Origin: Coralliovum pocilloporae
Lineage (GTDB): Bacteria; Pseudomonadota; Alphaproteobacteria; Rhizobiales; Cohaesibacteraceae
Reading direction: 5' to 3'
Length of the DNA stretch: 64,000 bases
Assembly: GCF_030845175.1 (NCBI RefSeq)
Contig: NZ_CP132542.1
Span: forward strand, 3,693,501-3,757,500
Both the position numbers and the translations under genes were made by a program. The notes under the pieces were generated by a model. The model was given only the letters and a program-made list of their open reading frames with translations. It ran no database searches and was not told where the DNA came from. Position 1 is the stretch's first letter. Each line of letters begins with the position of its first letter. This document shows positions 35,208 through 58,700 of this stretch, in pieces.

Positions 35208-35783
35208 ATGGTTCGCATCCGGAAGCGCCGTGACAACACCCTGATTGATGCAATTGAGGCAATCAGTCCGCTGCCGTTTTCAGGTTCGGTCTGGCGGGTC
35301 ACCAGAGAAGGACGTGATCCGACCCAGTGTTCCAGATCCGGCGGTCGGTGGGATGATGGGACGTTTGATGTTCTCTACACGTCAGCTGAACGGCTCGGTG
35401 CGATCAGTGAAATGAAGTTCCACATCATGCGTGGGCAACCGGTGATACCGTCGCGGGTGGCTTACAAATTGTATGAGATTGATGTGGCGCTTGATAGAAC
35501 GCTGCAGCTTCTTGATCTGGCTGCACTCAAGTCCATTGGCCTTGATATAACCCGATATGGCCAGCTCTCCTACGACGACAAGGGTGCCGAATACCCGCGG
35601 TCGCAGGACATAGCCGAGGTGGCCCATTTTCTGGATTATGACGGGCTTGTGGTGCCGTGTGCCCGATATGACTGTTCCAACGTTGTTGTGTTCTGTGATC
35701 GTGTCCTGCCTGAAACGCTGACCGTGACAGCAGACCATGGGCCTGTGAATTTGGCCCGTGAACTGACCCGCGAACTGAAATGA
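35208..35783 (+). CDS. RES-domain toxin (NAD+-targeting type)
   Basis: The 191-aa protein has the RES fold: SVWRVTREGRDP with the first conserved Arg (about residue 30), RSGGRWDDGTFDVLYTSAER, an acidic position in AISEMKFH, and a central DYDGLVVPCARY ending with the conserved Asn/Val strand SNVVVFCD. Known RES toxins degrade NAD+ (for example by phosphorolysis) and stop growth when the Xre antitoxin is lost. It is the second gene of a standard Xre-RES pair. On a repABC replicon, such a pair would also favour plasmid retention. Confidence 0.9.
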   Translation: MVRIRKRRDNTLIDAIEAISPLPFSGSVWRVTREGRDPTQCSRSGGRWDDGTFDVLYTSAERLGAISEMKFHIMRGQPVIPSRVAYKLYEIDVALDRTLQLLDLAALKSIGLDITRYGQLSYDDKGAEYPRSQDIAEVAHFLDYDGLVVPCARYDCSNVVVFCDRVLPETLTVTADHGPVNLARELTRELK

Positions 35784-38268: not shown

Positions 38269-41200
38269 TCAGGTCAGGGTGTAATCCAGACGGGTGAAAG
38301 CGATCAGAGGCTGCTTTCTGCTCGGCAACAGGCCTGAGAAGACCTGCATGTCAAAACTCAGGAAGGCTGTCTGTCCGGTCTCTGGCGTATGGGTCGAGAA
38401 CCAGTCTGTCACGGCCGACTGGGTGTCGGTGACAACGGATGAGGAATAGCTGAACAGCGGGCGGTAGAACATGGGCACAAGCGAGACAATATCCTCAGCC
38501 CCAAGCGGTCCGCTGTCCGGAGCCAGCCTGTAGCCATACCGTCCGATCAGTTTTTCCTCCGTGCGGGCGCTGGTCGGCGGTGAACCCAGGATGGCGGTAA
38601 AGATGGTTGTCAGGCTGCTTGAGAGCTGTGTTGAGGAACCGCTGCCGAACAGAATGGACTTGTCCCACCGGAGCCCCGGAACCGACAGGTTGCTGAAGGT
38701 GAGCGCCGGTGTCTGGTAGACAAAGGCGGATGCGGTTTCCTTGCCCGGCACCAGGTTCTGGTTCCGCAGAATGGAAAGGCTGGCGCGGGCATTCTGATAG
38801 GTGGTGACATCCAGATCATCATACCAGATCACATAGATGCGCTTGCCTTCGTCCGGAACAGGTTCCTGGAAGCTGTAGAAGATATAATCTGGTGTGGGGG
38901 TGCCGAGCGTCTCCCGCTTCAGTGGTTTCAGCACACCCTTGGCATCATAATAGCCAAGAGACGGAACATGGCTGGCTGGTCCCCAGCTTGCCGTGCCAGC
39001 CTCGCGGATAAGCACCAGAGCATCCAGCAGCAGTTCGCCATTGGCACCGGATTTGGTGCGCTTCTGCATGCGGAAAGTGTAGCTCGATTCAGGCACCAGA
39101 TTGTCGCCATTGCCACCGGAGAAGGTTCCGTTCTGCACAAAGCCCCAGTTGGTGGAGACTTTCGTTGCCAGATCAGCCATGGCCAGAACGGCTGATTTGG
39201 CCGGTGTGGTGGTGGAACCGTCACCGGGGCTGGTCAGCAATGTTGTCAGGTCTGTCTTGATGGCTGCCGCATTTGTGGAGAATTCCGCCAGTGCGTCGAA
39301 CGGGTCCTTGACCACGGCCAGCATGTCGGCATGCGGCGCTTCCGTGAAGTTGATGCCGATGGTGATCCGGGCTGTATCCTGGGCGGCAAGCTGCATTTCC
39401 ATCGCCGCATAATAGGACCAGGCCTTGGCCTTCCGGATACGCTCGTTGAGTGAATCAGATGGCTTGATATCCAATGGTTTGTAGGTGGCCTGGGCCCGCT
39501 GATTGGCCAGGCGCGGCGTGATCGGATAGGCCCTGAGCGGGATCGGAATATCGAGCTGGCCGATGGATGTGTCGATGTCTGCCCCGCCGATCTGTGACGG
39601 GGTGGAGGGGAGCGGGTTGACGAAGGTCAGCCATTTCGACGTCTCATAGCCGTCCACATATTGTGCGGGCTCAACGGCATATTCGAGCGCGGTAATATCA
39701 AAGGACAGATTGAGGAACAGACGTCGGTAATGGGCACGGTTGCGGGTGCTGAGCAGGGTCGTCAAAGCCTTGCTGCTGGAGGCAAGATCGATCTTGCCTG
39801 CGGTCAGGCTGTATTCCGGCACCCAGCGGGCGGTATGAAGCGTGACGTCGACCGCAAGAACCGCCTGCTCGGCAATCAGGCCCGACAGGACCTCCACGGT
39901 CAGGGACTGGCTGGCCGCCAGGCCTGACAGGCTTGAGGTTGCCGGTGTGATGGTAACGGACGTACCGCGCAGATAGACTGTGCCGGTCAGCAGACCATCC
40001 ACATCCATATTGGCAAGTGCCAGATAGCGAAGGCTGACGTCGAGCGCATTGGCCATGGAGGTGAGGGTGGAGCCGAAGACGGTCTTTGCAGTATAGCCGT
40101 CGACTGTAAGCGATGTGCCATCCCGGAACAGGGGTTTTGTATCCTTGAAGGCCGTGGCGAACTGAGCCGCCGTTGCAGCAAGCGTCGTCATGCCGATGGC
40201 CAGGGTATCATGGGCGGCAATGTGCCACTGCTTGTTGTTGAGGTTTAGGGTCTGGCCGGTTTCAAGGATGTTCGGGGTTGCGGCCAGTAGCTCGATAACT
40301 CCCTCAAGGGAAATGCTGAACTCGGTGGCCAGGCTCTGCAATGTTGTGGTTGTCGAGAGGCTGTGCCCTGGGGCGTTGATCTGGCCGCTCAGTCGGTGGC
40401 CGCCTTTATCTGATCCCGTTGTGGCGAAATCCGCTTCAACAGTTGCGGGCACCTGGATCACCGCGTCCGTCTGATAGCCCTGGGAGAGGTTGGCCCGTAG
40501 CTGCTGCTCTATGGCCGACCGGGCCGCCTGTGCGTCAATGGCTGCTCCGGATTGCTCGATGGGGGTAAGCTGCCCGGCGATTGCTGTGGCAAGTACCCCC
40601 TTGGCTGTTGTCAGCGCATTGAATGTGTCTGATCCCGCTGCCGCCTTCGTGATTTCGTAAGCGGGGCTCGCATAGGCCGGAGACAGAAGCAGGTCCAGTG
40701 TGGCGAGGAAATCGACGACCCAGTCCATCACGTCGATGGACTGAAAGACGGTGGCGGACGCATCCTGGCTGAAGGGCGGGTTCTGCCCGGACTGATAAGT
40801 CCTTATGGATGCCTCGCGGGAGATCAGCGACGTGGCCAGTGGCGGCAGGGCCAGATAACCCGGGGCTGGCGTGTTCTCACCCAGCTTCACCTTGCGGATG
40901 GTCTTGACGGATGACGGCTGGCCTGACGCACCGAAATGAACCGCATATTGCCGCTGGTTGCCGCGATTGGCCAGCGCCGTATCGGTCGGGCCGGTGCTGC
41001 ACCACAGCGCTCCGCCATAGGCGGTTCCAAGAGCTGTAGCAAAGTCAGTGAGGCTGGCCGGAACGCCTTTTGATTTTGGCGGTATAGGACTGGTGGATGT
41101 CCCGACCTCTGTGATCTGCGTGAAATTGGTATCGATCTCGTTTGCGGGCCGCGTCAGGATGACCGAGGTCTGCAATTGCGAGATAACCGAGGTCACTGCG

Positions 41201-44200
41201 GGGGACGCGGGCAGGGCCCCGCCGAAGCTGAGTGCGGGCGCAGGCAGAAGCACTTTGGCAGACGGGTTCACAATGGCCTGGCCCAGCAGAGCGGTGAGGA
41301 AGGCATCATAGTCCATCGCCTGACCAAGTGTGGCATTCACCAGCGCAAGGCTGTTGGCCAGCGTCTGAGATGGTCCGACGGTAAATGTGTGGTTCGATAT
41401 CGTATAATTCGCGCCCTGTTTCAGGAAGCCGTCAAGCGCGCCATTGGCCTTCGCCAGCCGGATGGCATCGGACTGGGATGCGGTCAGGAAGGCTGTTGCC
41501 AATGTTGTGAGACTGAGAGCGGAACCTGATCCGGCCTGGCTGGCCAGCGGGGCCGGGCACACCATCTGGCTGCCCTCCTGCATCAGTCCGGTCTGGGCCT
41601 GGATGGCAGAAACAAGCTGGGCCAATGTGGGTGTGCTGGTCGGGAAGCGGGGCAGCAGGGATGCAAGCGAATCCTCAGCCGTGGTGGTGACATTGCCTGA
41701 GCCGGAAACCGTGATGGTCTGTCCGGGGATGAACAGGCCACCAATGGTCTCCACCTGACCGGCCAGAGCGTCGGCGGTGACCCCGAATTTGCTGGCAATG
41801 CCACCAAAAGTCATGCCCGACTGGATGCCATAGGGCACAGCTGCAAGCGCACCTGCATCCAGAAGCGCGGGCAGGATCAGAAGGCTGTCTGTGGTCATGG
41901 TGCTGGTGAGATTGGCGGCGGTGAAATCCGCAAGGGTTACACCACCGGCCTGAGCCAGATAACCGCGCAGGCTTTCCCCGGCTGGCACCGTCTCACTGCT
42001 GCTGCCGGTCTGCATGCGGCTGTCCTGGGTCATCATGCCCGGCAGATCGCCATTGAGACTGATGAAGGTTGCCGTATTGCCGCCGAAGAGGTCGGTCACC
42101 ACCTGGCTGATGGTCTGGTCCTTGTCTGTAACCCGCCGGTCCACCGCATAGGTGGCAGGAGTGTGGGCAGGATTGAAGAGATCAACGATCAGCTTGTTGC
42201 TGACGGCGATTTCCTCAATCGTGGTGGTGACGCCCTGATTGGCAAAATCACTCACAAGAGACGTAAAGGTCGCGTTTTGGCTGGTTACGGATTTGGTGCC
42301 GACGAACAGGGTCAGACCATCGCTGATCAGCCCGGTCACATCCTTGTTGGCCCGGCCCAGATCCCCGAGAGAGCATTTCGAGGCCGCAGCATAATCACTG
42401 AGCGTCTTGCCCTGCGAGAGGGTGCCGGTGGTTGCCGGAATGGCCAGATCGGTTCCGGACGGGATGACGGTCACATCCGTATTGTGCCACTGGCTCAGCA
42501 GCGTGGCGGCGGAGACATTCACCCGTGTGGCAAACGCGTTCAGGGTTTCGTTGTGCTTGACCTGCTCGAACCTGGGCAGGGTAATGCTTGAGGCAAAGAG
42601 GCTGGAAATCGGCCGGTCGATATTGTCCTTGAGGAAGGCTGCTGCGGGCACACTGTAGGTGTTGGTGACCACCTGCAGACTCTGCCCGGAGGTGACCTTG
42701 TGGGTCTTGATCGTCAGGCCCGCAATCTGGCTCGTGAACACATAGGCCGTCGACAGATAACCGATGAGCGGAGCCAGGGGCGGGGTCAGGTTGGCGGATG
42801 ACAGGCTGGTCTTGATCGCCACACCCATGCCCGGTTGTCTGAGCTGATAGAAGGCGGACTTGAATTTCACCGCATGCGCACTTGCCGAACGAAGAGCCTT
42901 CTCGGACGAGAGGTCCGGCCCGGGCAGATAGGAATTGATCTGCAGGGCACCCTCGATCATCAACTTGGCGCTGGGGCTTGTGCCGCTGAATGTATAGTCC
43001 CATGTGGTGCCCGGCCAGTCGCTCAACCCGGTCAGCCGGTCCGTATAGCGATCCGGCACACTAACGCCGGACAGCGGGTCGGAGATCACCGCCTTGTTGC
43101 CGAAAATATCATGGGCCAGGAAACTGAGAGACGCCATGGATGTGGAGGAAACGCCTGTATAGGGGTCGTCGGTCACGGCTGGCAGCCACGGATTGCTCTG
43201 GGCGGTCCGGGCCGACGGGTTGGCACGCGGATAGAGACTGATTGTCTGGCTGTAGGTGACCTTGTCGCCGGTCCCGTGCGTATCGCCTGCCGTTGGCGCA
43301 GGGCCTTGCGGAATGGCTTCATTGCTGGCTGTGAACCCACCGCCACTGCCAAGCTTGTAGCCGATCAGCCCGTACAGCATGCCGGAAAGATCAGCTGCGG
43401 TCGGATTGGTGACGGACGACGGGTCGGTCCGTTCGATAGAGAACCCGCCAGTGCCCGGCGGGATGGTGGCCAGCCGTGTGGTGGGGGCATTGGCTCCGGT
43501 CTGTTCCCCAAAGACCTGGGATGAGGCCGCATCCACATTGTCACCCACAATCGCCACATTGTTGAAGGACATCAGCGGCCCGCCGGATGTGTTGCTCGAG
43601 CTCTGGCTGTGGAGCAGACAGACCACCTGGATGGTGCCCTGTCCGTTTTCATCAAATACGAAGTCGGGCAGGCCCGCGCCATCGGCGTCGTAGCTCAGAT
43701 AGAACCCGCCTTCCACCACAACGGAAGCCTCCCAGAGCAGCATCAGAAAATCACCTGCTGCGCTGACCGCCGCACTGTAGGTCTCGGGTGTTACCGCCAG
43801 AGCATCTGCTTCCAGCTCTGCCTGACTGCCAACGGTCGGGTTGCGGGTGGTGGTCGACAGATTGGTTTTCAGCAGAACGGTCTTTGACGCACTGACCGCA
43901 TCTGAGGCATAACCCTTCGGTGTCGAGCTGGTGGCGTTGGGCGGATAAAGAAGAAAGAGATTGCCGGTGTCGGTTGCTGAAGCACCGAGATAGGTCCAGA
44001 GCTGATAGAGCCGGTCTGTATGGGAGGCATCAGTGCCCTTGCAGAGATAGAGCCCGTCAATCCAGTCACCCTGCGCGGGGCTGTCGCCCGCCGCAGCGCC
44101 TGACGTATTGTCGGACGCGCCCGGATTGGTCACCCGGTGCAGGGCAACAGGAATCTGAATGGCCCAGGCATAGGATTTGAGCGCTGAACCCTCATCATCA

Positions 44201-47200
44201 GGCGGAGCATTCAGGGCCGTCACCCGGAGGTCGAACGGCAGGTTGCCGCCTGCATCGGTCAGCTGCTGAAGGTTTGATGGCAGAGGCCAGAGGCTGGGCT
44301 CACCCGGCGCATGATCCGCATTGCCTGCCGCTGCCGGCAGTGTCGGCCGGACGCCCGCCTGCCAGTGCTGAGTGACCTGGAAATTATAGTGGACCTTGGT
44401 GTCTTCGTAATTGCTGAGGACCTGGGGGGCGCTGGCATTCAGTGTCACGGTTTTGGATGGCAGTGAATTGCCGAATGTGGCGTGATCAATGGTCAGCGTG
44501 ATATCGGTCAGGGTTCCCGTTGCCAGCAACTGGCCTGCCCGGATGGTCTCAAGGTTCTGCAGGCCCGGATTGTGAGCCAGAAGCTCCTCTGCGACTGTGG
44601 CGTTGGGCTGAGTGTTGACGGTCGCTGCGGAAAAGCTGATCCAGTCGGCTGAGGAATGGCTGAGTGTCACATCAACCGGCGTGGTTGACGGATCCGTCCA
44701 GCCTGTTTGTTGTCCGGTGAGATCAACAATGCCGTAGAGCGAGCCGGTGAAATCCCCGGCCAGCACCTGAGCTGGTGTCAGGCCGGTGAATGTGGTGTCA
44801 TCAGGGGCGGGCACGCGCAGGCCATGGGCGAGGAAGTTCGACACCTGCATGGCCACCGTATTGAGCTGGCCTGTTGTCTTCAGGGCCGTGACGAACTGGT
44901 CCACCGGCAGAGCAGGCACATCGCGGATGGTCAGCCCTGCATTGCCTTCGAACAGGCCGGTCAGATTCTCAAGGATCGGCACCAGATCCGCAATCGCCAG
45001 ATCATAGGCATCAGAAAGGGTCTGAAGTGTCTGGTCCTTCGGCAGTTTTGCGGTAAACGGCGCAACCCAGGCGGCGTGCAGCGGCGTCAGGACGTCCTCA
45101 GTCAGATTGTTGGTGATGAGATCGTTCAGGGCGAGCCCCGGGAAGGTGGTGCCCGCCAGCATGTCCAGCGTATCGGTTGAGGTGATCGTGTGGTCCATCG
45201 CCGGAATGGTGACAGGGCTTGTCACCGCCGGATTGGTGGCATTGTCCATGGCCTGGAAGCGGGCAAATGTGGCCGCGATGGTGGCCAGCGTGTCACCCGT
45301 GTGCACCGTATAGGTGCTGCTTGCCGGGGTGGAGTTCAGATAGGCGGTCGGAATGGACAAGGGCGCGCTGGATGGGGACAGGGTGTCCCAGTTCACATTC
45401 GGATTGAGCGTGGAAATCGCCTGCTCGTACCAGTCGAGATTGGGGGCGCCCGTAACCCCTTCATTGCGCACCTTGAAGAAGGCGGTGATGAAATGCTGGG
45501 TATCTCCGGCCACCGGCTGATAGGTGAAGGCGGGGATCTTCAGCTTTGTGCCCTCGCGGAGGAAGCCCTGGACGCTCTTGTTGGCAGTGCCGATCTGCAG
45601 ACCGGTGAGCGGATGAGCCGGGTCCACAAACGGAATGGCTGTGGCCACTTCGTTCAGTGTCTGGCCGGACCGGACCTGATAGGCCAGACGCGGCATGGCG
45701 ATCTGGAGATCTTCCGCCAGCTTCACCCCCGTATTGTCTTCGGCAATCGACAGGGCGGTCACGCCGACAGGGATATTGACATCCAGACTGTCACCGCGTG
45801 CGGCCAGCGGGTTCATGTCCGCCAGTGTCTGCGGGTGATGACCAGTAAAGAGGGCGAGGTCGGCCAGCGTCTGGCCGCGGGACAGCCGGGCTCTGGCTGT
45901 CAGGGTCGGGAACCCGCCTGCAAGGGTCTTGAGACTTGGCCCGTTCGTCTGGGGATAGGTGTAAGGGTAGTTCTGTAAAAGGGCGACAGCATTCTGCAAG
46001 GCCGCCTGGGTCAGAAGCAGGAAATACTCGCTGAAAATCAGCTCGGCCAGACTGGCGGTGCCGCCCGCACCGGCCCCGCTGCCTGATTGTGTGCTGCCCG
46101 AGACCGATGGTGCGTCAGCCACGCTCTGGGTGGCATTGGTCATCAGCTGTTTGAAGTAGGCCGCGAGATTGGTGGCATAGGCCGTTGATGTGGGATTGTG
46201 GCTGGCAAAATCGATGTTGGTGGTCACCGTACCCTGTACGAGCCTTGCCGAGATTTCCGGACAGACCGGCACGAATGTTCCGCTGGATGCGGCAATTGTG
46301 CCGGGCTGGGTGCCCTGCGGATAGGCGATGATGTCCAGATGCAGGCTGTCACTCATGAAGGATGAGAGATTGCTGTAGGCGAAGGTTCGCTGCTGGAAAT
46401 CAGGGTCGGAAGTTTCTTTCAGCAGATCCTCAAGCTGCAGCAGGCTGAGCGGATCGGTGCCGGTCTTACCGGCCCCCGCCTGGGCCGCCCAGCGGAAAAA
46501 GGCCTCCACCATGGATGCCAGAGGCGGGTCGCCGCTTGCGTCCAGATGATGCACGTGATCAAGGCTGTGCGCCCCACTCTGAACATGGCCGTGAGCCTGC
46601 GGGTTCACCGCATTTTCTGCAATGAAGCCGAGCACGATCTCGGTCTGGTTGCCATTGCTGGCCCCTGTGTGACCATAGAGGCTTGCCGGATCGGCAACAG
46701 TGAACATGGGCAGGAACTGGACCCGCGCCGTCTTGTGCTGGCCTGCACCGAACACAGGCACCGGCGTCCAGGTATCCGCGCTTGGGGCGTTGAACGCCAT
46801 CTCCGGCATCAGCAGGGATGTGCGCATATGCTTGATCTGGTGCAGGCTGCGATGATCGGGATGCTGCATCAGGCCTGGCAGATAGTGGCGGGCATGGCGC
46901 AGGCGCGTCAGCCTCAGGCGCGGCTTCTGGCTGCGCTGTTGCCTCAGCCGCGGTGTATGGTGGTCGCTATGGCCAAGACTGACAAAGGCAATTGCGTCCC
47001 GGTTTTCGTGATGGGACGCGAGGCGCTCGTTCTGGGTGCCGACAATCCATGGCGTGGCTGTGGCGCTGCCGATTTTGAAGCTCTCCTCAATCGTCAGACT
47101 GAAGCTGAAATGGACCGTGACGAACAGCACCTTGACGCTGGCTTTGGCGGTGACCTCGACTTTTAGTTCCACATCGGATGGCTTGTGGGCTTCCAGAACC

Positions 47201-50200
47201 AGCGTGACGCTGGCTCTGGCCACAATGCTGACGGACGCCTTGATAACGACGAAGTCCACCGAACCATAGAGCGTCCCGACGATACCTGCGGTGCCCTGGA
47301 CCCAGAAATAGAAGCCCGGATCTGAAGCTTTGTCATAGGGGTTGAATGGTGCAAAGACGCCTTCGAAAATGCCGTAGACTTCCACCTTCAGCCCGGCTTT
47401 CAGCGGCCCGGCCTGGAAGTCCTTGCCAAGGCCGACAGACAGCCCGACACCGGCCTCGATCACCGGGTCGAACTCGCCATTGGTGATCAGCGGCACCCGG
47501 TCTGATGTGGCTCCGGTCAGATAGGCGAAATAGAGCCCGCCCTCGCCGATGAACGGGAAGACCTCGACCGCAAAGGCGATGGAGAAATCCTGATTGTGCG
47601 GGAAGCCCAGATCGACGCGGAAATTGCCATTGGTAAAGATATCCACGTGAATAATGCCGAGCGTGACGCTGACTTCGCCGAATTCCAGATGGCGGAACAT
47701 GTCCGGCACGCGCAGATCGACCGACAATTCTCCGATATCGTCCGAGATCTTCCTGTAGAGCAGCTCAAACCGCAGGCCGTTGAGTGCTCCGCCCCGTTCA
47801 CCGGAAACCTTGATCAGCGCCCCGTAGATTGTGGGGTCGAAGAACACTGCTGACAGGGACAGGGTGTCGAGAACGGTGGCGTCCAGTCCGAACATCCATG
47901 TGCTGTTGCCGCTGTATCGGAGGCTGGCGGCCTTGGGGTCCGTCAGCGGATTGCCGCCACCGGTGACCGGCTGCATGGATGCTTTCAGTGCCGTTATCAC
48001 CTTCTCGACTGTATCAAGCTCGCTTGCAGGTACCGACAGGGCAATATGCTGGCCCATGCCCACATAACGGAGGTCGATCAGTTTTGGCCCCTTGCCGGGA
48101 ACCTCCGGTGCCTCGTCATTCAGCACATCCCAGCTGAGCGGGTCATCATTGGTGCCGAAGGGCTGACCGAGAAACTGGCCGTAAAGCTGTACATAGACTT
48201 TCCCCTCGCCATTGACGCTCTTGTAGAGGAGGCCGATCTTGTCGAACTTGGCAAAGGTCAGGTCCAGGTTGAGGCGATAGTCCACCTCCACATCCGATGT
48301 GGTGAGATTGACCACCAGCTCCAGGTTCTTGAAGTTGATCTGGTAGAGAATATCCCACGGAGCGGACAGGGTGCGATGCTCGCCGGGCAGGGCCAGATTG
48401 ATGAGATATTCGATGATCTCGCCAAAGGACAGGTCACCCAGCCGGATGGTCAGGAAGGTGTTCTTGGTGGTGCCCTTGACCACCTTCTGGGTGACGGTGG
48501 CCTGAATGCCCCGCTGCTTGTACCAGATGCCGAAGCTGAGAGCCGAATTGTCGGGGGCGAACTGATAGGCGGCTGAAATCAGCAGATTGAACAGCGAGAA
48601 TGTGCCTTTCACCTCGCCGGAAATGACCCATTCATTACTGGCCTGGCTCACGTCAAGAGAGACCGGCAGAGCGGTGATGTCCTCATAGGTGAGCGCCTGC
48701 GGAGCCGAGTGGTGAGGCTGGTGCTGGATGGTCCCTGGCGGTTGGTGAGGTCGAGACAGGCGCGGGTTCTGCTGCTGGCCTTTTGTGCCTGTCAGCGACA
48801 GGGAGGCGGTCAGCTTGAAGGTCGGGCTGTTCTGGTCGTTGAAGATCTTGAAATCCCAGGCCAGTGACATGCTGCCGTCAAAAGTGTAGCGGAGCGGATT
48901 GTTGCTTTTGTCTGTCGCCAGCGTCGCCTGCAACTTGTCGACCACCAGATCTGGCACGCCGTAAGACCTGCCGGGGATCGGGCCGTTCGGATACATGAGT
49001 GCAGTCAGCAGCTTGGTGATGCTCAGCGAGCTGCCCCGAACAAGGCCGCCCGCAAACCCCCAGCCGTAGTCATTGCCGGGTGAGGTGCCGGTGAAATAGA
49101 ACTTGGCCTGATCGATATGGGTAAAGGCGGTCAGCGAGCCCTGCAGCAACTGGCCGTCATAGTCGATATCAAAACTGATGCCATCAAAGCCGAGGTCAAT
49201 CAGGGCCCCGCCATTGGCCTGTCCGAGGCTGATGCTCCAGTCAGTGAAGATATCGGTGCCGAAGCCGAAGGCACCGGTGTGGATGTTGACCGACATGTCC
49301 AGCCGGGTGATTTCCATGTCGATGGGCGGTGTGTAGGTCTTGCCTGTGAGTTTCTGCATGACAGAGGCCATCAGCGCGGCCATGGAGACGGTCATGTCTG
49401 GCTCCAGGCTGGCCGTCAGGTCAAGCCGGGGAATGCCCAGCGCGGCCACCATCTGCACTTCCTCAACAATGGAGAAATGCGTGTAGAGTTCACCGTTTGC
49501 CTGCGGCGCAAGCCCGTCGATGAACTGGATGCTCATGAAAGCACCGACCTCGGAGACGGTGAGAATGTCATTGGGCAGAAGCGGCCAGGAGCCCACATTC
49601 ATGGCCACGTCGAACGTCAGATTGCTGACGGTGGGCAGACCGGAGCCATCGGAGACATAGAGCGTCATCGACAATTGCTTCAGCTCAAGCGAGACTGCTG
49701 CAGGCACGGCGGCCGGAACCAGGGCCCCGAGATTGATACCACCGGTAAGGCTGTTGAGGTCTGACCAGGAGGACAGCGGCACAGAGGCTCCGGTGGTGGC
49801 CAGTGTGTATGAATCGCTTTGCGGCAGAAGCGACAGGGTGAAGGCCAGCGGTGCGCCACTGCCAAAGGCGAGACTGGCCGTCAGATGGGCCGAGGCAAAG
49901 GGGCGCTTGGTGGTGGTCTTGCCCGGATTGTTCGGGTCGTAATAGGGCAGCTCCTTGTATTCGCTCGTGAGGTTGGCCCCGAACTGAAGTTTCAGCCCGG
50001 CAAGGGTGATTGGTGTGCTCCCCGCGGGACCAAGACTGACTTCCGGCATGTCGCCTGCGGTCAGGTTGACTGGTCCGGCCACTGTCTGGCTGTCTTCTGT
50101 CACCAGCAGCGGCTGGGCCATGGCCAGTGCGCCTGTCAGTTTCAGTCGCCCTTTGAAATTGATGCCGGGTGTTGTCACCAGCGGATAATCGGTGACAGTC

Positions 50201-50631
50201 ACAGCCGTGCTGGTGAGCAGGAAGAAGGAGGACTGGAACTTGACCTCTGCAAGACTTGTCGGCCCGAGCCCTGCAAGGCTCTCGGTCAGCGTCCAGCCGC
50301 CCGCGCTTGCAGGCACATCGGCACTGAGGACGAGCTGGGGATTGCCGTTTGCATCCACCGAGAAATTGGCCGTGACCGACAAGACGGTCTGTGTGCCGCC
50401 ACCGGACCAGGGAAACAGCGTCGCGCTGCCCTGATAGCGGATGATGTTGGCCGTTGGCGGGGCGGGGAAGGTCTGGACACTGGTCAGTGACAGGGTTGCG
50501 CCTGCCAGCGTATCGGTCAACAGGCGATGGATATCGGTCCAGCCGGTAATGGATGTGGCGGGTATGGTCAGCGTCTTGCCGGATGTGTTCTGGAACGGCT
50601 GAAGGGCGGTGTAGAGTTGCTGGATATCCAT
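38269..50631 (-). CDS. Giant 4120-aa protein with many degenerate LysM-like repeats
   Basis: One uninterrupted frame of 12.4 kb. No signal peptide or membrane helix is apparent. Residues 1-1200 are beta-rich repeats of unknown type (possibly a DUF6603-like region; not verified), with a Gln/His-rich linker near residue 615-645. Residues about 1204-1275 form an Arg/His-rich linker (HHENRD, LRLTRLRHARH). From about 1580 to 2030 and 2640 to 3560 there are at least fifteen LysM-like units of 45-55 aa with (S/T)G(Q/D)TL at the start and LIxxGxxLxIP-like ends (for example SGQTLNEVAT, HTGDTLATIA, SQGKTLSDYA, SGMTFGGIAS). Residues 2040-2600 and 3560-4120 look like globular beta domains. It ends the five-gene unit, 8 bp after the nuclease gene. 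Function unknown; LysM-like repeats suggest binding of peptidoglycan, chitin or another glycan. Confidence 0.85.
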   Translation of the reverse strand: MDIQQLYTALQPFQNTSGKTLTIPATSITGWTDIHRLLTDTLAGATLSLTSVQTFPAPPTANIIRYQGSATLFPWSGGGTQTVLSVTANFSVDANGNPQLVLSADVPASAGGWTLTESLAGLGPTSLAEVKFQSSFFLLTSTAVTVTDYPLVTTPGINFKGRLKLTGALAMAQPLLVTEDSQTVAGPVNLTAGDMPEVSLGPAGSTPITLAGLKLQFGANLTSEYKELPYYDPNNPGKTTTKRPFASAHLTASLAFGSGAPLAFTLSLLPQSDSYTLATTGASVPLSSWSDLNSLTGGINLGALVPAAVPAAVSLELKQLSMTLYVSDGSGLPTVSNLTFDVAMNVGSWPLLPNDILTVSEVGAFMSIQFIDGLAPQANGELYTHFSIVEEVQMVAALGIPRLDLTASLEPDMTVSMAALMASVMQKLTGKTYTPPIDMEITRLDMSVNIHTGAFGFGTDIFTDWSISLGQANGGALIDLGFDGISFDIDYDGQLLQGSLTAFTHIDQAKFYFTGTSPGNDYGWGFAGGLVRGSSLSITKLLTALMYPNGPIPGRSYGVPDLVVDKLQATLATDKSNNPLRYTFDGSMSLAWDFKIFNDQNSPTFKLTASLSLTGTKGQQQNPRLSRPHQPPGTIQHQPHHSAPQALTYEDITALPVSLDVSQASNEWVISGEVKGTFSLFNLLISAAYQFAPDNSALSFGIWYKQRGIQATVTQKVVKGTTKNTFLTIRLGDLSFGEIIEYLINLALPGEHRTLSAPWDILYQINFKNLELVVNLTTSDVEVDYRLNLDLTFAKFDKIGLLYKSVNGEGKVYVQLYGQFLGQPFGTNDDPLSWDVLNDEAPEVPGKGPKLIDLRYVGMGQHIALSVPASELDTVEKVITALKASMQPVTGGGNPLTDPKAASLRYSGNSTWMFGLDATVLDTLSLSAVFFDPTIYGALIKVSGERGGALNGLRFELLYRKISDDIGELSVDLRVPDMFRHLEFGEVSVTLGIIHVDIFTNGNFRVDLGFPHNQDFSIAFAVEVFPFIGEGGLYFAYLTGATSDRVPLITNGEFDPVIEAGVGLSVGLGKDFQAGPLKAGLKVEVYGIFEGVFAPFNPYDKASDPGFYFWVQGTAGIVGTLYGSVDFVVIKASVSIVARASVTLVLEAHKPSDVELKVEVTAKASVKVLFVTVHFSFSLTIEESFKIGSATATPWIVGTQNERLASHHENRDAIAFVSLGHSDHHTPRLRQQRSQKPRLRLTRLRHARHYLPGLMQHPDHRSLHQIKHMRTSLLMPEMAFNAPSADTWTPVPVFGAGQHKTARVQFLPMFTVADPASLYGHTGASNGNQTEIVLGFIAENAVNPQAHGHVQSGAHSLDHVHHLDASGDPPLASMVEAFFRWAAQAGAGKTGTDPLSLLQLEDLLKETSDPDFQQRTFAYSNLSSFMSDSLHLDIIAYPQGTQPGTIAASSGTFVPVCPEISARLVQGTVTTNIDFASHNPTSTAYATNLAAYFKQLMTNATQSVADAPSVSGSTQSGSGAGAGGTASLAELIFSEYFLLLTQAALQNAVALLQNYPYTYPQTNGPSLKTLAGGFPTLTARARLSRGQTLADLALFTGHHPQTLADMNPLAARGDSLDVNIPVGVTALSIAEDNTGVKLAEDLQIAMPRLAYQVRSGQTLNEVATAIPFVDPAHPLTGLQIGTANKSVQGFLREGTKLKIPAFTYQPVAGDTQHFITAFFKVRNEGVTGAPNLDWYEQAISTLNPNVNWDTLSPSSAPLSIPTAYLNSTPASSTYTVHTGDTLATIAATFARFQAMDNATNPAVTSPVTIPAMDHTITSTDTLDMLAGTTFPGLALNDLITNNLTEDVLTPLHAAWVAPFTAKLPKDQTLQTLSDAYDLAIADLVPILENLTGLFEGNAGLTIRDVPALPVDQFVTALKTTGQLNTVAMQVSNFLAHGLRVPAPDDTTFTGLTPAQVLAGDFTGSLYGIVDLTGQQTGWTDPSTTPVDVTLSHSSADWISFSAATVNTQPNATVAEELLAHNPGLQNLETIRAGQLLATGTLTDITLTIDHATFGNSLPSKTVTLNASAPQVLSNYEDTKVHYNFQVTQHWQAGVRPTLPAAAGNADHAPGEPSLWPLPSNLQQLTDAGGNLPFDLRVTALNAPPDDEGSALKSYAWAIQIPVALHRVTNPGASDNTSGAAAGDSPAQGDWIDGLYLCKGTDASHTDRLYQLWTYLGASATDTGNLFLLYPPNATSSTPKGYASDAVSASKTVLLKTNLSTTTRNPTVGSQAELEADALAVTPETYSAAVSAAGDFLMLLWEASVVVEGGFYLSYDADGAGLPDFVFDENGQGTIQVVCLLHSQSSSNTSGGPLMSFNNVAIVGDNVDAASSQVFGEQTGANAPTTRLATIPPGTGGFSIERTDPSSVTNPTAADLSGMLYGLIGYKLGSGGGFTASNEAIPQGPAPTAGDTHGTGDKVTYSQTISLYPRANPSARTAQSNPWLPAVTDDPYTGVSSTSMASLSFLAHDIFGNKAVISDPLSGVSVPDRYTDRLTGLSDWPGTTWDYTFSGTSPSAKLMIEGALQINSYLPGPDLSSEKALRSASAHAVKFKSAFYQLRQPGMGVAIKTSLSSANLTPPLAPLIGYLSTAYVFTSQIAGLTIKTHKVTSGQSLQVVTNTYSVPAAAFLKDNIDRPISSLFASSITLPRFEQVKHNETLNAFATRVNVSAATLLSQWHNTDVTVIPSGTDLAIPATTGTLSQGKTLSDYAAASKCSLGDLGRANKDVTGLISDGLTLFVGTKSVTSQNATFTSLVSDFANQGVTTTIEEIAVSNKLIVDLFNPAHTPATYAVDRRVTDKDQTISQVVTDLFGGNTATFISLNGDLPGMMTQDSRMQTGSSSETVPAGESLRGYLAQAGGVTLADFTAANLTSTMTTDSLLILPALLDAGALAAVPYGIQSGMTFGGIASKFGVTADALAGQVETIGGLFIPGQTITVSGSGNVTTTAEDSLASLLPRFPTSTPTLAQLVSAIQAQTGLMQEGSQMVCPAPLASQAGSGSALSLTTLATAFLTASQSDAIRLAKANGALDGFLKQGANYTISNHTFTVGPSQTLANSLALVNATLGQAMDYDAFLTALLGQAIVNPSAKVLLPAPALSFGGALPASPAVTSVISQLQTSVILTRPANEIDTNFTQITEVGTSTSPIPPKSKGVPASLTDFATALGTAYGGALWCSTGPTDTALANRGNQRQYAVHFGASGQPSSVKTIRKVKLGENTPAPGYLALPPLATSLISREASIRTYQSGQNPPFSQDASATVFQSIDVMDWVVDFLATLDLLLSPAYASPAYEITKAAAGSDTFNALTTAKGVLATAIAGQLTPIEQSGAAIDAQAARSAIEQQLRANLSQGYQTDAVIQVPATVEADFATTGSDKGGHRLSGQINAPGHSLSTTTTLQSLATEFSISLEGVIELLAATPNILETGQTLNLNNKQWHIAAHDTLAIGMTTLAATAAQFATAFKDTKPLFRDGTSLTVDGYTAKTVFGSTLTSMANALDVSLRYLALANMDVDGLLTGTVYLRGTSVTITPATSSLSGLAASQSLTVEVLSGLIAEQAVLAVDVTLHTARWVPEYSLTAGKIDLASSSKALTTLLSTRNRAHYRRLFLNLSFDITALEYAVEPAQYVDGYETSKWLTFVNPLPSTPSQIGGADIDTSIGQLDIPIPLRAYPITPRLANQRAQATYKPLDIKPSDSLNERIRKAKAWSYYAAMEMQLAAQDTARITIGINFTEAPHADMLAVVKDPFDALAEFSTNAAAIKTDLTTLLTSPGDGSTTTPAKSAVLAMADLATKVSTNWGFVQNGTFSGGNGDNLVPESSYTFRMQKRTKSGANGELLLDALVLIREAGTASWGPASHVPSLGYYDAKGVLKPLKRETLGTPTPDYIFYSFQEPVPDEGKRIYVIWYDDLDVTTYQNARASLSILRNQNLVPGKETASAFVYQTPALTFSNLSVPGLRWDKSILFGSGSSTQLSSSLTTIFTAILGSPPTSARTEEKLIGRYGYRLAPDSGPLGAEDIVSLVPMFYRPLFSYSSSVVTDTQSAVTDWFSTHTPETGQTAFLSFDMQVFSGLLPSRKQPLIAFTRLDYTLT

Positions 50632-50639: not shown

Positions 50640-52127
50640 TCACACCGGTATTGTCGCGACAAGCGGCAGATGGTCGCTGACAAATATGTGGTAATATTCC
50701 GCTGCCCGGCGGGCATCGGTCACAGCGCCTGCACCAAACTGGGCCCGGGTGGTGGCCCAGTTGACAAACGTGCCGCCCCAGGCCCCGGATATGATTGGTG
50801 ACCATTGATAGACAAACCCGCCGCCGTGATTGCGCTTGCGGTGGCGTTTTTCCGGTCCGGTCACGGCAGCAAACCGGGTGTCGGGTGCCGCAACGGCCCC
50901 GGCCACATGAGCCATGAAAGCGTCTGTGGCGGTGAGGCAGCCTGCATAGGCAGCCCCGCCGGCACCAGTCAGCACCGTGGGCAGGTTGATCCGCTGGGCC
51001 GTGATAACCTGGGGAGCGGTCCGTGGGAAAAAGGCCAGGTCAATCTTGTGGCGGAGATAGTCATTGGGGTCGGCTGAGATGATGGGCGTGTCATGGGCGG
51101 CGCCGGTCATCAGCTGGACTGTGGTGCGCCGGGCTGTGTCTGCTGCGGTGTGATCAGGTGCCTGGGTCGTCTGCGCGCCACCGGTAAATTGCTGGGCATG
51201 ATTGGCATTCATATAAGCGTAGTCACCGGGCCAGTCTGCCTGATCGACCGAATGGTTGAAATCACCGCCGAAAACAAACTTGGTTAGTGGAACAGTTGTG
51301 GCAGCAGTGGGAACACCAGCCGCCAGCCCGTTGGTTGCATAAACCTCGCGCGCCAGGCCTGACATGAAAGCTCCCCAGGAGGCCCGTGTCGCATTGCTCG
51401 GGGCATGGTAGGCCGCAACGGGGCAGAGTGTGTCGTGACCGTCATTCAGTTTCAGCACCACATAGGCCGGACGGCGGGACTTGTGCCACTGGACCCCCAG
51501 CACATCATAGGTCGAGGTGGGCGGATAGTTCAGCTTTGGCCAGTGATCCATCAGACCATAGACCCCGTGAGCATCGGCCTGATATGGAAAATTGTTGGCA
51601 GGAAGATAGCCGCCGGTTGCGCCGAACTTCTCAGGTCCGCCGCCAAGGGTGTTGTTGTCTGTGGGTCTGCCAAAGAGAGAAATATTCAGCGGTGAATTCC
51701 CGGCTGGAACCGTGCCGCTGGCAATCTGGTTCAGCCCCTGAAGCATGTCAAAGCGGGCGGCCTGGTTGTCGCGCCAGACCACCGCATAGCCTTCCGTCCG
51801 GGCTCCGGTCATGAAGATCAGATCATCCTCTGAGGTCACGGTGTCAGTATCACTGTGGGCAACCGCACAGGCGCACCAGCTCACTTTCCAGTCCTTGCTT
51901 CCGGCAGGAAGCGGATGGTTGAGCTTGTTTCTGAGATCAGTCAGGGCGGCCTGAGGAGTGGAGGACACCTCCTGAATAAGCAGGACATCAATGTTGTTCT
52001 GCTGGATGAAGGCGGTAATGAAGGCATTGCGCATGGCATTGCTGGCTGAGCCCGGCAGGCCATTATATTTGGGGCTGCTTGATCCGTAATTCTGGATATT
52101 CCAGATGCAGACGACAACATTGGGCAT
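50640..52127 (-). CDS. Endonuclease/exonuclease/phosphatase (EEP, DNase I-like) family protein
   Basis: The 495-aa protein carries all EEP catalytic motifs: WNIQNYG (residues 9-15), the metal-binding Glu in LLIQEVSS (about 53), the His in AAYHAPSN (about 240), GGDFNHS (about 290), KIDLAFF (about 365) and the final SDHLPL (about 485). It should therefore be an active phosphodiesterase (DNase, RNase or phospho-lipid/nucleotide phosphatase). There is no signal peptide. The ATG overlaps the stop of the 1215-aa gene (TGATG) and the giant gene follows after 8 bp, so it is made as part of that operon. Inserts around residues 130-200 and 300-350 make it longer than a minimal EEP domain. Whether it acts as a toxin or a processing enzyme is open. 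Confidence 0.86.
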   Translation of the reverse strand: MPNVVVCIWNIQNYGSSSPKYNGLPGSASNAMRNAFITAFIQQNNIDVLLIQEVSSTPQAALTDLRNKLNHPLPAGSKDWKVSWCACAVAHSDTDTVTSEDDLIFMTGARTEGYAVVWRDNQAARFDMLQGLNQIASGTVPAGNSPLNISLFGRPTDNNTLGGGPEKFGATGGYLPANNFPYQADAHGVYGLMDHWPKLNYPPTSTYDVLGVQWHKSRRPAYVVLKLNDGHDTLCPVAAYHAPSNATRASWGAFMSGLAREVYATNGLAAGVPTAATTVPLTKFVFGGDFNHSVDQADWPGDYAYMNANHAQQFTGGAQTTQAPDHTAADTARRTTVQLMTGAAHDTPIISADPNDYLRHKIDLAFFPRTAPQVITAQRINLPTVLTGAGGAAYAGCLTATDAFMAHVAGAVAAPDTRFAAVTGPEKRHRKRNHGGGFVYQWSPIISGAWGGTFVNWATTRAQFGAGAVTDARRAAEYYHIFVSDHLPLVATIPV

Positions 52128-55790: not shown

Positions 55791-58700
55791 CTAGGGGGCT
55801 ACGGTCTGGCTGCCTTTCAGTGAAATCTGGTCGCCGCCGACCACCGGCATATCCAGCGGCCAGTAGAGCGGCGTGAGATTGCCGAGGTCGCTGTTCGTCA
55901 GATTGATCGGATCAAGGGACAGGCTGGGTGCAATATCGGGATAGGCGAAGAGGTTGGCGCTGGCCCGAGTCATGGCAATCTGGTCGCCGCCATTGCCGCC
56001 GAAATAGGGCGCCAGTCCCTGAGCGCTCAGCAGTTGCCGGACTGTGGTGCCGAGCGGCACCCAGCGCTGTTCCGACTGTATGGCAATGTTGATGAGCGGT
56101 GTAATGGCTGAGCGGCCCCTGAAATAGGTGAGGAAATAGTCGTTGCTGTTGGGGAAGGTGCCGGAGGTCGCATAGGCCTGGGTGATTGTGTCGAGCTTCT
56201 TCCAGGTGGCTGCGCCCGCAAGAGCCACATTGCTCTCTGCCGAGTTGGAGCCGGTGCTGCCTGATGAGAGGAAATCCGCTGGATAGAACAGCCGGTAATA
56301 GGCCTGCCGGTTCTGCCCGTCGAAGAAGTCAATGGCACCGGCGGCAACGGGTGTCTTGTCGGTGCCGGTGCCGCTGCCGGGATACATCAGCGACAGGAAG
56401 GTATCGACCGAGAGGCTCCGGTTTGGTCCGGCTGCCAGTGTGCTGGCACCGGATTGCGGGATGGCCGAGGCAAGATCCATGATCTCCGTACCCGTTGCCA
56501 CATATCCGTTCTTCTCGTTTGTGCCGCCAACGGGCGACTGATAGACCGCATTGGACACCTGCAGGCGGGTGCCCGGGGTCAGGTCGGCAACGCGCAGACT
56601 GTTGTCGTGCCAGAGGCCATAGCGATAGTAGAGCACTTCCTCGAAAGTCTGTGGCATGGCCTCGGCAATCATCTGCCGGAGAAGGGCAATAGCCCAGGGG
56701 AAGACGCCTGTATCCTCCACATCGTTCAGGAAACCGATATAGCTGGTCCGGAGCGAGGTTCTGACACCGTTTGAGCCGAGCGTTGTCCAGGCATCGGTGC
56801 CGATGGTGAGCTTGTAGGGCAGAGCCGAGCCGGATGGGGACGGGGAAAGTTTGAACGCATTGGCGGATGTGGATGACACTGTTGGGTTTGCAGACCCTGT
56901 AAACGGCTTTGGCAGATAGAGCTCGATGACATTGCCGGAGACGTCATTGAGGGTCTGGTACGTGCCTGAGCGGAACAGATAGGGCGGGTCACCGGCTGCC
57001 TTGACGCCGGTGCCATAGCCATATCCTGCCAGCACAGGCTTCTGTGCCGTGCCGGGCTGACCCGTTACCGTGGCCGCTGATCCGTTCTGCCCCGATGCGG
57101 CCCTGATGCTGACGGCAACGTTTGCCCCGAACGGATAGGAAATGCTCGACGTGGTGATCGCGGTTGATGCGCTGTTTGCGCCGGATACATAGGTGTCGGG
57201 TATGGCGGGTGAACCGCCGGCGACCGAGACCACATAGCCGCCGGTGCCGGGCCCGGGTTTCGGTTGCCACGCCACATGCAGCTTGCTGCCATCATAGGCG
57301 GCACTGGTCAGGGTCGGGATGGATGATGGCACCGCCATATCCGCAGAACCCGGGGTCAGGCTGTGTGGGCCGATGCCGGTTATCCGTGCCGTCACAGCAG
57401 CACCGTCGGGTATGCCCACATCAATGGTAAAGGGCTGGGCAAACGGGTTGGCCGTGGCCACAAAGCTCTTCCGGGCCAGAAGGCCGCCATCCGCAAAAAC
57501 ATCTAGCCAGTAGATGTTGCCCTGAGAGACCGCGCCCACATCGGCATGAAGGGACAGGGTTTTGCCGTCATAGCTGCCGCTCGACACGCTGGCCTGTGCC
57601 AGAATGCTCACGGACCGTGCCGGGCCCGTACAATGGGCATTTTTGGGTGTGATAGTGAGCGTCCCGGCTTCGAGAAACTCAGCCGGAGTGGGCCCGCTAT
57701 AGCGTGTTCCGTCGACGGTGACACTGGCCGTGTGGCTGGCAGACGTGGTGGCTTTCAGCTCATAGGTCTCTATCGCGGCCGTATCATCCGCCGTCCAGGC
57801 GAGATCCATGCCGCTGGTGCCGAGTTCCGCGCTCAACAGGGCTGGAGTCTGAAGGATCAGCTCGGCAGCGCCTGAAAGCGGCCCGGCTGCTATCTTGTCG
57901 GCGCTGATCAGCCGTGCCTGCAGGCCGTATTTCTGGGTCTTGTCACTGGGTGTGGTGAAGCTGACGCCGGTTGCGGTGGCCCCTGACGGAGTATCCACCA
58001 CCGTGCCATCAATGGTCAGCAGGGCTTCCACCGTGCCGCTGCCGGCTGTGGTCCAGGTGGCCGTGACCGTGCTTGCGGTGACGGTTGCCAGCCCCATGGT
58101 GATGACATCGGTAATCAGGTCAACGGCTGTGCTGGCCGCACTGTTGCGCAGGGCAGATGTGCCGGTAACGGTGACCGCCGCCCCTGCGGCATCTGCCTTG
58201 GCCAGCGGTATGGAGAGAACCGTTTCCGACCCGGTCGTAACGGTCAGCTTGTTGGTGCTGCCATGGGCAACTTTCACCAGATAACCGTCAAGATAGGGAA
58301 GGCTCGCCGCCGACCAGGCAAGATGCAGCTGTTCGCCATCATAGACGACGGACTTGAGCACCGGTGCCGCAAGGGTGGGCAATGTTACGGAATGGCTGGC
58401 GGATATTGTTCCCTGAATGATGCCGATTGTCGGGCGGGCAGTTACCGACCAGGTCTTGGACAGATCCAGATTGCACGGAATGCGGACGGGCATGCTTGGC
58501 CCTGCGGTGAAATGTTGCGGCGTCGTGCCATCCGTCACGGTGATGGCGTAGCCGTCCGCTGCGGTCTCAGAGGCAAAGGCAAGGTCGAGGGTCAGGATTT
58601 CGCCGTCATAGTCCGCCGCGCTGACCGTTGGCGTGGCAAGCGGTATGGAAACCGGAGAGGATGCCGGACCGGTGCTGGTCTTTGAGTTGGTGCTGGTCAC

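What the first reader, a model, noticed from the sequence alone, without database searches (positions are those of the whole stretch)
38269..50631. 4120-aa protein with fifteen or more degenerate LysM-like repeats in two blocks
Units starting (S/T)G(Q/D)TL and ending in a hydrophobic-Pro strand recur at 45-55 aa spacing at about residues 1580-2030 and 2640-3560, separated by a 550-residue globular domain. LysM arrays of this size without a signal peptide or anchor are unusual; exposure to glycan would need an unconventional export route or cell lysis.
Basis: partly seen in the sequence, partly recalled or inferred. Interest (0 to 1): 0.7.

Follow-up and report, generated by a model that had tools for sequence, protein, structure and literature searches.

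The report
Giant LysM protein in nuclease cassette
The giant protein really carries some fifteen to twenty weak copies of a known sugar-binding module, and it belongs to an undescribed set of neighbouring genes, usually including a probable DNA-cutting enzyme, that turns up scattered across many bacterial phyla and may form a large protein complex acting outside the cell.

Summary
Confirmed. The minus-strand ORF 38269-50631 (4120 aa) holds 15 LysM units at E<0.01 and 20 at E<=1. They were found with a profile built only from other organisms' homologues; shuffled copies averaged 0.01 and 0.08. That unit family retrieves solved LysM proteins at 1e-19, and AlphaFold shows beta-alpha-alpha-beta units. 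There are three blocks, not two. A simple hydropathy scan found no signal peptide in any of 88 related giant genes.

The larger find is the setting. The giant is the last gene of a five-gene cassette: Hint-like protein, F, B, slot enzyme, giant. One scan found 230 related places in public genomes; 58 aligned cores span 11 phylum groups with strong signs of transfer. Partner B stood in 81 of 81 testable loci. A DNase I-like or a ComEC-like enzyme accompanies it, never both (28 and 35 of 88 loci). The conserved core, B and the C-terminal domain matched no Pfam, NCBIfam or PDB family. The core is predicted as a porin-like amphipathic barrel.

Best reading: a modular nuclease-carrying complex acting outside the producing cell, probably antagonistic. 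Delivery and target are inferred, not shown.

The parts
38269..50631 (-). G: giant protein, 4120 aa, last gene of the cassette
   Evidence: dN 0.262, dS 1.22 over 4089 codons against Oceaniradius L013
48667..50631 (-). G residues 1-655 (GN), variable N-terminal part
   Evidence: HMM hits in only 9 of 88 loci; 63% identical to L013
46942..48666 (-). G residues 656-1230 (GC), conserved core; residues about 851-1190 predicted as a porin-like amphipathic beta-barrel
   Evidence: in 88 of 88 loci, which were selected by it; AlphaFold mean pLDDT 87.1; VIA Z 13.1, rmsd 7.7; strand faces
44905..45948 (-). LysM block A, residues 1562-1909, 5 profile units
   Evidence: five beta-alpha-alpha-beta units plus two with a single helix in the model
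42706..44481 (-). GM, residues 2051-2642, globular domain between LysM blocks; part resembles Fn3/GH2-type beta-sandwiches
   Evidence: 83 of 88 loci; (best Z 6.7, weak)
41236..42705 (-). LysM block B, residues 2643-3132, 10 units (7 at E<0.01)
   Evidence: PHROG endolysin match at 2914-2985, E 1.1e-8
40366..41235 (-). GX, residues 3133-3422, conserved domain with no LysM units
   Evidence: 79 of 88 loci; no LysM hit at E<=10
39835..40365 (-). LysM block C, residues 3423-3599, 4 units (3 at E<0.01)
38272..39834 (-). GE, residues 3600-4120, conserved C-terminal domain of unknown family
   Evidence: 77 of 88 loci; no PDB relative at E<0.6
50640..52127 (-). E: slot enzyme, 495 aa, endonuclease/exonuclease/phosphatase fold, DNase I-like, catalytic residues present
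   Evidence: Pfam PF03372 27.4 bits, cut-off 24.5; family profile to DNase I 1.1e-16; invariant residues
52127..55774 (-). B: 1215 aa, partner of the giant, no known family
   Evidence: 81 of 81 loci with at least 3 kb upstream of G; no Pfam, NCBIfam or PDB relative
55791..59900 (-). F: 1369 aa; family with fn3 or lectin-like domains in some members
   Evidence: 47 of 88 loci, a lower bound because loci end upstream; of 7 homologues scanned, Laminin_G_3 over its cut-off in 3, fn3 in 2 (one over its cut-off); no family in the window copy over its cut-off
60048..61721 (-). H: 557 aa, first gene, C-terminal Hint-like (autoprocessing) domain from about residue 363 (60051-60635)
   Evidence: intein_Nterm 18.3 bits, below its cut-off of 24.5; Pfam shows no Hint in this copy; motifs HCVA, TGGHP, NGIAVGD; homologue upstream of the cassette in 15 of 29 genomes

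Best explanation
The window encodes one copy of an undescribed, horizontally spread five-gene cassette (H-F-B-slot nuclease-giant G) that makes a modular, nuclease-carrying protein complex. Shown by sequence: the cassette, its conservation, real LysM arrays, nuclease families with catalytic residues kept, and no Sec-like N-terminus on G or B. Inferred: G is the scaffold. Its LysM arrays dock the complex on peptidoglycan or chitin. Its conserved core forms an amphipathic beta-barrel or sheet that contacts or crosses a membrane, and together with B may shield the nuclease while it is still in the producer. F and H add adhesion and autoprocessing. The complex leaves by lysis or another non-Sec route, and its nuclease then attacks DNA outside or inside a neighbouring cell, most likely as an antagonistic (toxin-like) system.
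For: Tight operon: gaps of 147, 16, -1 and 8 bases. B next to G in 81 of 81 testable loci. One core copy in each of 29 of 29 genomes searched whole. Two unrelated folds accompany the cassette, never together (28 EEP, 35 MBL, 0 both of 88), and each one's best solved relatives are DNA-handling proteins: DNase I 1.1e-16 and ComEC 5.8e-18. Catalytic residues are invariant in the 20 EEP and 20 MBL proteins aligned. Slot enzymes carry evident Sec-type signal peptides in 7 of the 57 loci read, 4 EEP and 3 MBL: in those lineages they act outside the cytoplasm. LysM units confirmed; lectin-like and fn3 domains in F homologues. Porin-like amphipathic core, also in monoderm genera (Streptomyces, Paenibacillus, Lysinibacillus), so it is not simply the producer's own outer-membrane porin. 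Sporadic, plasmid-borne and cross-phylum. Purifying selection.
Against: No delivery, secretion, binding or nuclease activity was tested. No conserved immunity family was seen after G, and in the window the next gene is convergent; a DNase aimed at kin would need one. 25 of 88 loci have neither nuclease: the place is empty, holds other proteins, or is cut off, so a nuclease is not essential. Slot type changed only 3 times on the core tree (49 rows scored), so the exclusivity rests on few events. Motifs are not complete everywhere: one of 28 EEP proteins lacks GD[FYW]N and one lacks the SDH/SNH motif. The MBL profile also matches teichoic-acid phosphorylcholine esterase (1.7e-6), so the substrate may not be DNA. 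Barrel matches have rmsd of 6-8 A, and Foldseek's top rows have TM-scores (query-normalised) of 0.20 or less, so a common arrangement is not excluded.
Confidence: 0.4

Rival explanations
1. A cell-surface or wall-bound scavenging complex: LysM arrays hold it on the producer's own wall and the nuclease degrades extracellular DNA for phosphate, nucleosides or DNA uptake (ComEC works in DNA uptake).
For: ComEC-like and DNase I-like slot enzymes; signal peptides on some slot enzymes; LysM and lectin/fn3 domains; no immunity gene needed.
Against: G and B show no Sec-like N-terminus in the homologues scanned, monoderms included. A scaffold of thousands of residues with a porin-like core seems more than scavenging needs (inference). 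Sporadic, cross-phylum distribution is unusual for housekeeping scavenging.
Confidence: 0.25
2. An intracellular defence (anti-phage) system with a nuclease effector; the LysM units serve as protein or cell-wall-fragment sensors inside the cell.
For: Mobile, sporadic, plasmid-borne; no Sec-like N-terminus on G or B; an MBL slot protein matches PADLOC LmuA (3.9e-9) and RTasMBL (1.3e-7).
Against: None of the five window proteins matches PADLOC at E<=0.1. Signal peptides on slot enzymes of two families. Lectin and fn3 domains in F homologues.
Confidence: 0.12
3. A structural or storage assembly, for example a lipid-carrying or coat particle, in which amphipathic beta-sheets like those of large lipid-transfer proteins bind lipid and the slot enzyme is a lipid or polymer phosphodiesterase.
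For: The core also aligns with apolipoprotein B-100 (Z 11.2 over 279 residues, rmsd 17.0) and microsomal triglyceride transfer protein (Foldseek E 0.014). Strong two-faced strands. The EEP and MBL folds also include lipid and teichoic-acid phosphodiesterases (weaker rows).
Against: The closest solved relatives of both slot families are DNase I and ComEC. Similarity to lipid proteins is weak and partly generic.
Confidence: 0.12

Closest known systems
LysM domain (Pfam PF01476); e.g. T. thermophilus NlpC/P60 LysM protein 4uz2 and fungal effector Ecp6 (4b8v)
   Same: Unit profile matches them at 1.5e-19 and 2.9e-19; 31 of 40 homologous units match PF01476 at E<=0.1; beta-alpha-alpha-beta in the model.
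   Different: Up to 28 units (window 15 at E<0.01) in one signal-less giant, in blocks split by unknown domains, rather than a few units on a secreted enzyme or effector.
AtlA of Enterococcus faecalis (six LysM repeats; PMC10113225, passages read)
   Same: A multi-unit array of imperfect LysM repeats.
   Different: AtlA has an extended signal peptide, a glucosaminidase domain and low-complexity linkers. The giant shows no signal peptide, no glucosaminidase match, and units that follow each other closely.
DNase I family and ComEC
   Same: Slot enzymes are closest to these among solved structures and keep the catalytic residues in the aligned sets.
   Different: Encoded as a separate gene beside a giant scaffold and partner B; no ComEC channel.
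Tc insecticidal toxin complexes (from general knowledge)
   Same: Several very large signal-less proteins in one operon with a changeable enzymatic part; sporadic spread.
   Different: No Pfam family other than LysM types was found in G and none in B; no resemblance by sequence.
Polymorphic toxins with Hint/PT-HINT domains (PMC3482391, four passages read)
   Same: A Hint-like domain in H; adhesion domains such as LysM occur in such toxins.
   Different: No conserved downstream immunity family seen; the Hint-like part sits in its own first gene, not before a toxin tip of the giant.
Outer-membrane porins and ushers
   Same: Predicted core resembles them in fold (Z 13.1 to OmpT).
   Different: No signal peptide seen, no sequence relation found, present in monoderm bacteria, embedded in a protein of up to 4680 aa.

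Membership tests
LysM domain | sequence profile match | tested here: met
LysM domain | beta-alpha-alpha-beta fold | tested here: met
   Five clear units and two with a single helix in the block A model, pLDDT mostly 80-94. Foldseek matches to LysM structures were weak in the 1091-aa model (best E 1.4-1.8, none at E<=0.001). Blocks B and C were not modelled.
LysM domain | binds peptidoglycan or chitin | not testable with these tools
   no experiment
DNase I-like EEP nuclease (slot enzyme E) | catalytic Asn, Glu, His, Asp-x-Asn, Asp, His | tested here: met
   N10, E53, H241, D289, N291, D363, H486 invariant in the 20 sequences aligned, of 28 EEP genes found; their role is recalled from the DNase I literature
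DNase I-like EEP nuclease (slot enzyme E) | nearest solved relatives are DNases | tested here: met
   five DNase I/gamma sequences at 1.1e-16 to 3.8e-13, next 7.3e-7
DNase I-like EEP nuclease (slot enzyme E) | cleaves DNA | not testable with these tools
   no experiment
Tc toxin complex | TcA/TcB/RHS sequence families | tested here: not met
   Pfam scans of the window proteins, NCBIfam scan and scans of 39 homologous pieces list none; family names recalled
Polymorphic toxin with Hint | Hint domain | tested here: inconclusive
   window H: intein_Nterm 18.3 bits, cut-off 24.5, no Pfam Hint, motifs present. L073 homologue: Hom_end_hint E 7.8e-7 but 29.7 bits against a cut-off of 32.1. The Tistrella neighbour is annotated as a Hint protein.
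Polymorphic toxin with Hint | adjacent immunity gene | tested here: not met
   window: next gene convergent. No family downstream of G in more than 4 loci, with a median of only 1834 bases held after G; 21 of 69 loci have a same-strand ORF within 300 bp. Diverse small families could be missed.
Outer-membrane beta-barrel protein | barrel fold | tested here: inconclusive
   Z 13.1, rmsd 7.7, 224 aligned; Foldseek query-normalised TM-scores 0.20 or less among the best rows; strands two-faced
Outer-membrane beta-barrel protein | Sec signal peptide | tested here: not met
   0 of 88 and 0 of 86 giant genes, simple hydropathy scan
Known anti-phage defence systems | PADLOC model match | tested here: not met
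   none of five window proteins at E<=0.1; one MBL slot homologue (L023) does match LmuA and RTasMBL

The most novel reading that the evidence does not exclude
A whole class of cross-phylum, phage-independent delivery machines: a signal-less giant protein with LysM arrays and a soluble porin-like barrel, together with its constant partner B, encloses a swappable DNase and carries it across the wall and membrane of a neighbouring cell, having evolved separately from Tc toxins, contractile injection systems and bacteriocins.
Probability: 0.25. Interest if true: 0.92.

Novelty: categorically new. Interest (0 to 1): 0.75.

Why it matters
Giants of 2105 to 4680 residues (67 complete ones) belong to one recurring cassette that the protein-family libraries used here name only as LysM, fn3/lectin, Hint-like or weak nuclease. 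It occurs at 230 or more places in sampled genomes and appears to cross phyla. If it is a nuclease-delivering complex, it would be a new kind of inter-organism weapon or nutrient machine. It would also bear on a puzzle: why long LysM arrays occur in proteins with no visible way out of the cell. The mutually exclusive nuclease slot gives a direct, testable handle.

Tried and rejected
Chance or low-complexity origin of the repeats: rejected by shuffled and reversed controls. Plus-strand gene: rejected, the plus-strand reading has many stops. Phage origin: no match in 50,697 phage records for residues 1-2000, one IMG/VR contig only. Known defence system: PADLOC negative for the window proteins. 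Internal duplication among cassette parts: of the pairs compared by hhalign only the two LysM regions are related (99.2%). Fold of the core among viral proteins: no match at E<=0.001.

A first, too strict LysM regex found only one seed; a looser one gave 83 against 0.4 shuffled. A naive hypergeometric P of 7.8e-7 for nuclease exclusivity is not used as evidence: the loci are related and only 3 switches are needed on the tree. One search undercounted slot enzymes because of an ORF-overlap filter (30 MBL, 27 EEP loci); one search recounted 35 and 28, counting also those upstream of B. An attempt to show an empty insertion site in relatives failed: the two flanking genes were not found next to each other. 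VIA-align on the block A model listed Fn3/GH2-type sandwiches for the middle domain and no LysM rows; that list is filled by one domain and says nothing on LysM. Pfam on mixed cassette pieces could not be assigned to genes, so seven F proteins and window H were scanned again.

Literature: seven searches of the open-licence PMC library. Six accession or locus-tag terms of homologues gave 0 papers; in the other listings no title or abstract start described such a cassette. At most 10 papers per search were listed, and subscription papers are not covered. Read: passages of PMC3482391 and PMC10113225.

Full report
1. The observation. The ORF at 38269-50631 lies on the minus strand and encodes 4120 aa. 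Pfam gives LysM 23.3 bits for the whole protein (cut-off 20.9) with no single passing stretch. A PHROG endolysin and an NCBIfam transglycosylase D profile hit residues 2914-2987. To test the repeats without circularity I built a LysM-unit profile from homologous giants of other organisms, window excluded (753 domains in 81 proteins), and scanned the window protein. It finds 15 units at E<0.01 and 20 at E<=1; 100 shuffles average 0.01 and 0.08, the reversed protein 0 and 0. The units fall into three blocks (1562-1909, 2643-3132, 3423-3599), separated by conserved non-LysM domains GM (2051-2642) and GX (3133-3422); one weak unit (E 0.96) lies at 2007-2045.

2. They are LysM domains. A profile of 40 homologous units, chosen among the better ones from other loci, matches solved LysM proteins at up to 1.5e-19, and 31 of those 40 units match PF01476 on their own at E<=0.1. 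The AlphaFold model of residues 1555-2645 (mean pLDDT 81.1) shows five beta-alpha-alpha-beta units in block A and two more with a single helix; one of the five, at about 1702-1761, lies where the profile found none. Foldseek listed known LysM structures only weakly (E 1.4-1.8, nothing at E<=0.001), not surprising for a 1091-residue multi-domain query. Units per complete giant range from 0 to 28, median 10, in 67 giants of 2105-4680 aa.

3. A cassette. Upstream of G, on the same strand and almost touching (gaps 147, 16, -1 and 8 bases), lie H (557 aa, Hint-like), F (1369 aa), B (1215 aa) and E (495 aa, EEP nuclease). tblastn with residues 1-2000 against plasmids found 8 records from Alphaproteobacteria, Betaproteobacteria, Actinomycetes, Cyanobacteria and Bacilli; in all 8 a B gene lies upstream, next to G or one gene away (annotation; Embleya is unannotated). 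A scan of the species-genome collection with the conserved core gave 253 pattern matches, 230 of them encoding relatives; the best 80 were kept. It used one short peptide pattern, so 230 is a lower bound. IMG/VR gave one; phage records none.

4. Conservation in 88 loci (window, 8 plasmid loci, 79 others; two duplicate records, L020 and L054, dropped). These loci were selected by the core, so its presence in 88 is by construction. Other parts of G: block A region 83, GM 83, GX 79, GE 77; F 47 and H 6 are lower bounds because the loci end upstream. By tblastn B is present in 81 of 81 loci with at least 3 kb upstream of G. In 29 whole genomes the core occurs exactly once each; one metagenome bin outside that set, SZUA-493, yielded two loci, L027 and L061. 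An H homologue lies 11-15 kb upstream on the same strand in 15 of 29 genomes; one more genome has it on other contigs and 13 have none at E<=1e-5. In a draw of 385 genomes of the class only 4 (2 of 277 genera, the window's own included) have the core.

5. Spread. On a tree of 58 cores, 11 phylum-level groups need 28 changes (least possible 10; shuffles average 34.0), and starred branches force at least 8 changes for Pseudomonadota alone. Example from isolates: Rhodanobacter OK091 groups with Chitinophaga fulva and Sediminibacterium magnilacihabitans. Some rows are metagenome bins, so single placements may be binning errors (for instance L014, 70% identical to the window on an 8.5-kb contig), and more than one change is not by itself proof of transfer. 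The window and Oceaniradius L013 differ by dN 0.262 and dS 1.22 over 4089 codons of G: purifying selection.

6. The slot. Between B and G, or upstream of B in six loci (five EEP, one MBL), lies either an EEP protein (28 loci) or an MBL-fold protein (35 loci), never both, in 88 loci; 25 have neither. Eight loci have tandem copies. The best solved relatives of the EEP set are DNase I and DNase gamma (1.1e-16 to 3.8e-13, next 7.3e-7). Those of the MBL set are ComEC proteins (5.8e-18 to 8.8e-8), mostly at their C-terminal beta-lactamase-like part, which I recall to be a nuclease, followed by phosphorylcholine esterase (1.7e-6). Metal-site and catalytic residues are invariant in the 20 EEP and 20 MBL proteins aligned; among all 28 EEP proteins one lacks the GD[FYW]N motif and one the SDH/SNH motif. 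Control: profiles of B and GE searched the same way match nothing below E 0.6. Slot type follows the giant's tree with only 3 switches among 49 rows scored, so it is replaced rarely, but by an enzyme of apparently the same chemistry. This is the strongest functional clue: the slot partner is probably a DNase.

7. Where it acts. None of 88 G, 75 B and 22 F genes with a start inside the locus has a hydrophobic N-terminus by a simple scan. But slot enzymes carry evident signal peptides (hydrophobic stretch and Ala-x-Ala-like site, read by eye) in 7 of the 57 loci whose N-termini were printed: EEP in L034, L037, L056, L087 and MBL in L071, L074, L088. So in those lineages of two enzyme families the nuclease works outside the cytoplasm. 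Of 7 F homologues scanned, 3 carry a lectin-like Laminin_G_3 domain over its cut-off and 2 match fn3, one over its cut-off. The giant has only 6 cysteines in 4120 residues.

8. The core. The most conserved part (residues 656-1230) has no Pfam or PDB relative by sequence. Its model is confident (pLDDT 87.1) and mostly beta, ending in six strands of 17-22 residues, several sharply two-faced (face differences up to 5.2 hydropathy units; mean for strands of 9 or more residues 2.95 against 1.63 for random windows of the same profile; one strand shows almost none). Fold comparison gives outer-membrane porins (Z 13.1, rmsd 7.7, 224 aligned) and, less well, large lipid-transfer proteins; in Foldseek the best E was 6.5e-4 (an usher), with query-normalised TM-scores of 0.20 or less among the best rows. 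Since monoderm genera carry it too, I read it as an amphipathic barrel or sheet in a soluble giant, not as a porin of the producer.

9. Mechanism. Steps shown by sequence: cassette, LysM identity, nuclease families and residues, lack of Sec-like N-termini on G and B, spread. Steps inferred: complex formation, shielding of the nuclease by B and G, exit by lysis or another route, glycan docking, membrane passage and target. In 13 of 88 loci the giant is split into adjacent genes, which fits parts that reassemble; some splits may be sequencing errors. The absence of a conserved immunity family suggests that kin cells are not the target, or that it is not a toxin. Rivals are listed with their tests.

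10. Novelty. LysM arrays, DNases, Hint and fn3/lectin domains are known parts. B, GC and GE have no family match in Pfam, NCBIfam or PDB in the scans made; GM and GX gave none in the window's own copy in Pfam or NCBIfam, and their pieces in the mixed set could not be told apart. No paper describing the cassette was found in the searches named under Tried and rejected. I rate the system as categorically new in that limited sense, with its function still open.

Noticed in passing
L005, L009, L010, L015, L021, L027, L033, L042, L046, L061, L077, L091, L093: In 13 of 88 loci the giant is split into two or more adjacent genes, at different points in different lineages, which suggests that its parts work as a complex; in some bins frameshift errors may be the cause.
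   Followed up: partly
L013:4829-7848; L015, L022, L026, L029, L036, L086, L088: Tandem duplicates (up to three) of the slot enzyme lie between B and G.
   Followed up: partly
L031, L063, L069, L070, downstream of G: A family of collagen-like genes follows the giant; the L063 and L069 copies also show Kelch-like repeats by eye.
   Followed up: no
L008, L010, L074-L076, L078, L081, L090, upstream of B: A 220-300 aa family of unknown kind is encoded upstream, often in two or three copies.
   Followed up: no
L082, L084, L090 slot position: A third kind of slot protein (532-614 aa) with a glycosyltransferase-like look (recalled; Pfam found nothing for L082).
   Followed up: no
L093 (IMG/VR UViG 2541047519): One contig classed as viral carries the cassette with a split giant; whether it is really viral was not checked.
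   Followed up: no
L004 (G020:C9:113997-114668): A distant core relative (32% identity) in a 1740-aa frame in another family of the same order.
   Followed up: no
window 34842-35783, + strand: Two adjacent ORFs look like an Xre/RES toxin-antitoxin pair (recognised by eye, no call).
   Followed up: no
window 26532-34526, + strand: ORFs look like a reductive pyrimidine degradation cluster with an ABC transporter (recognised by eye, no call).
   Followed up: no
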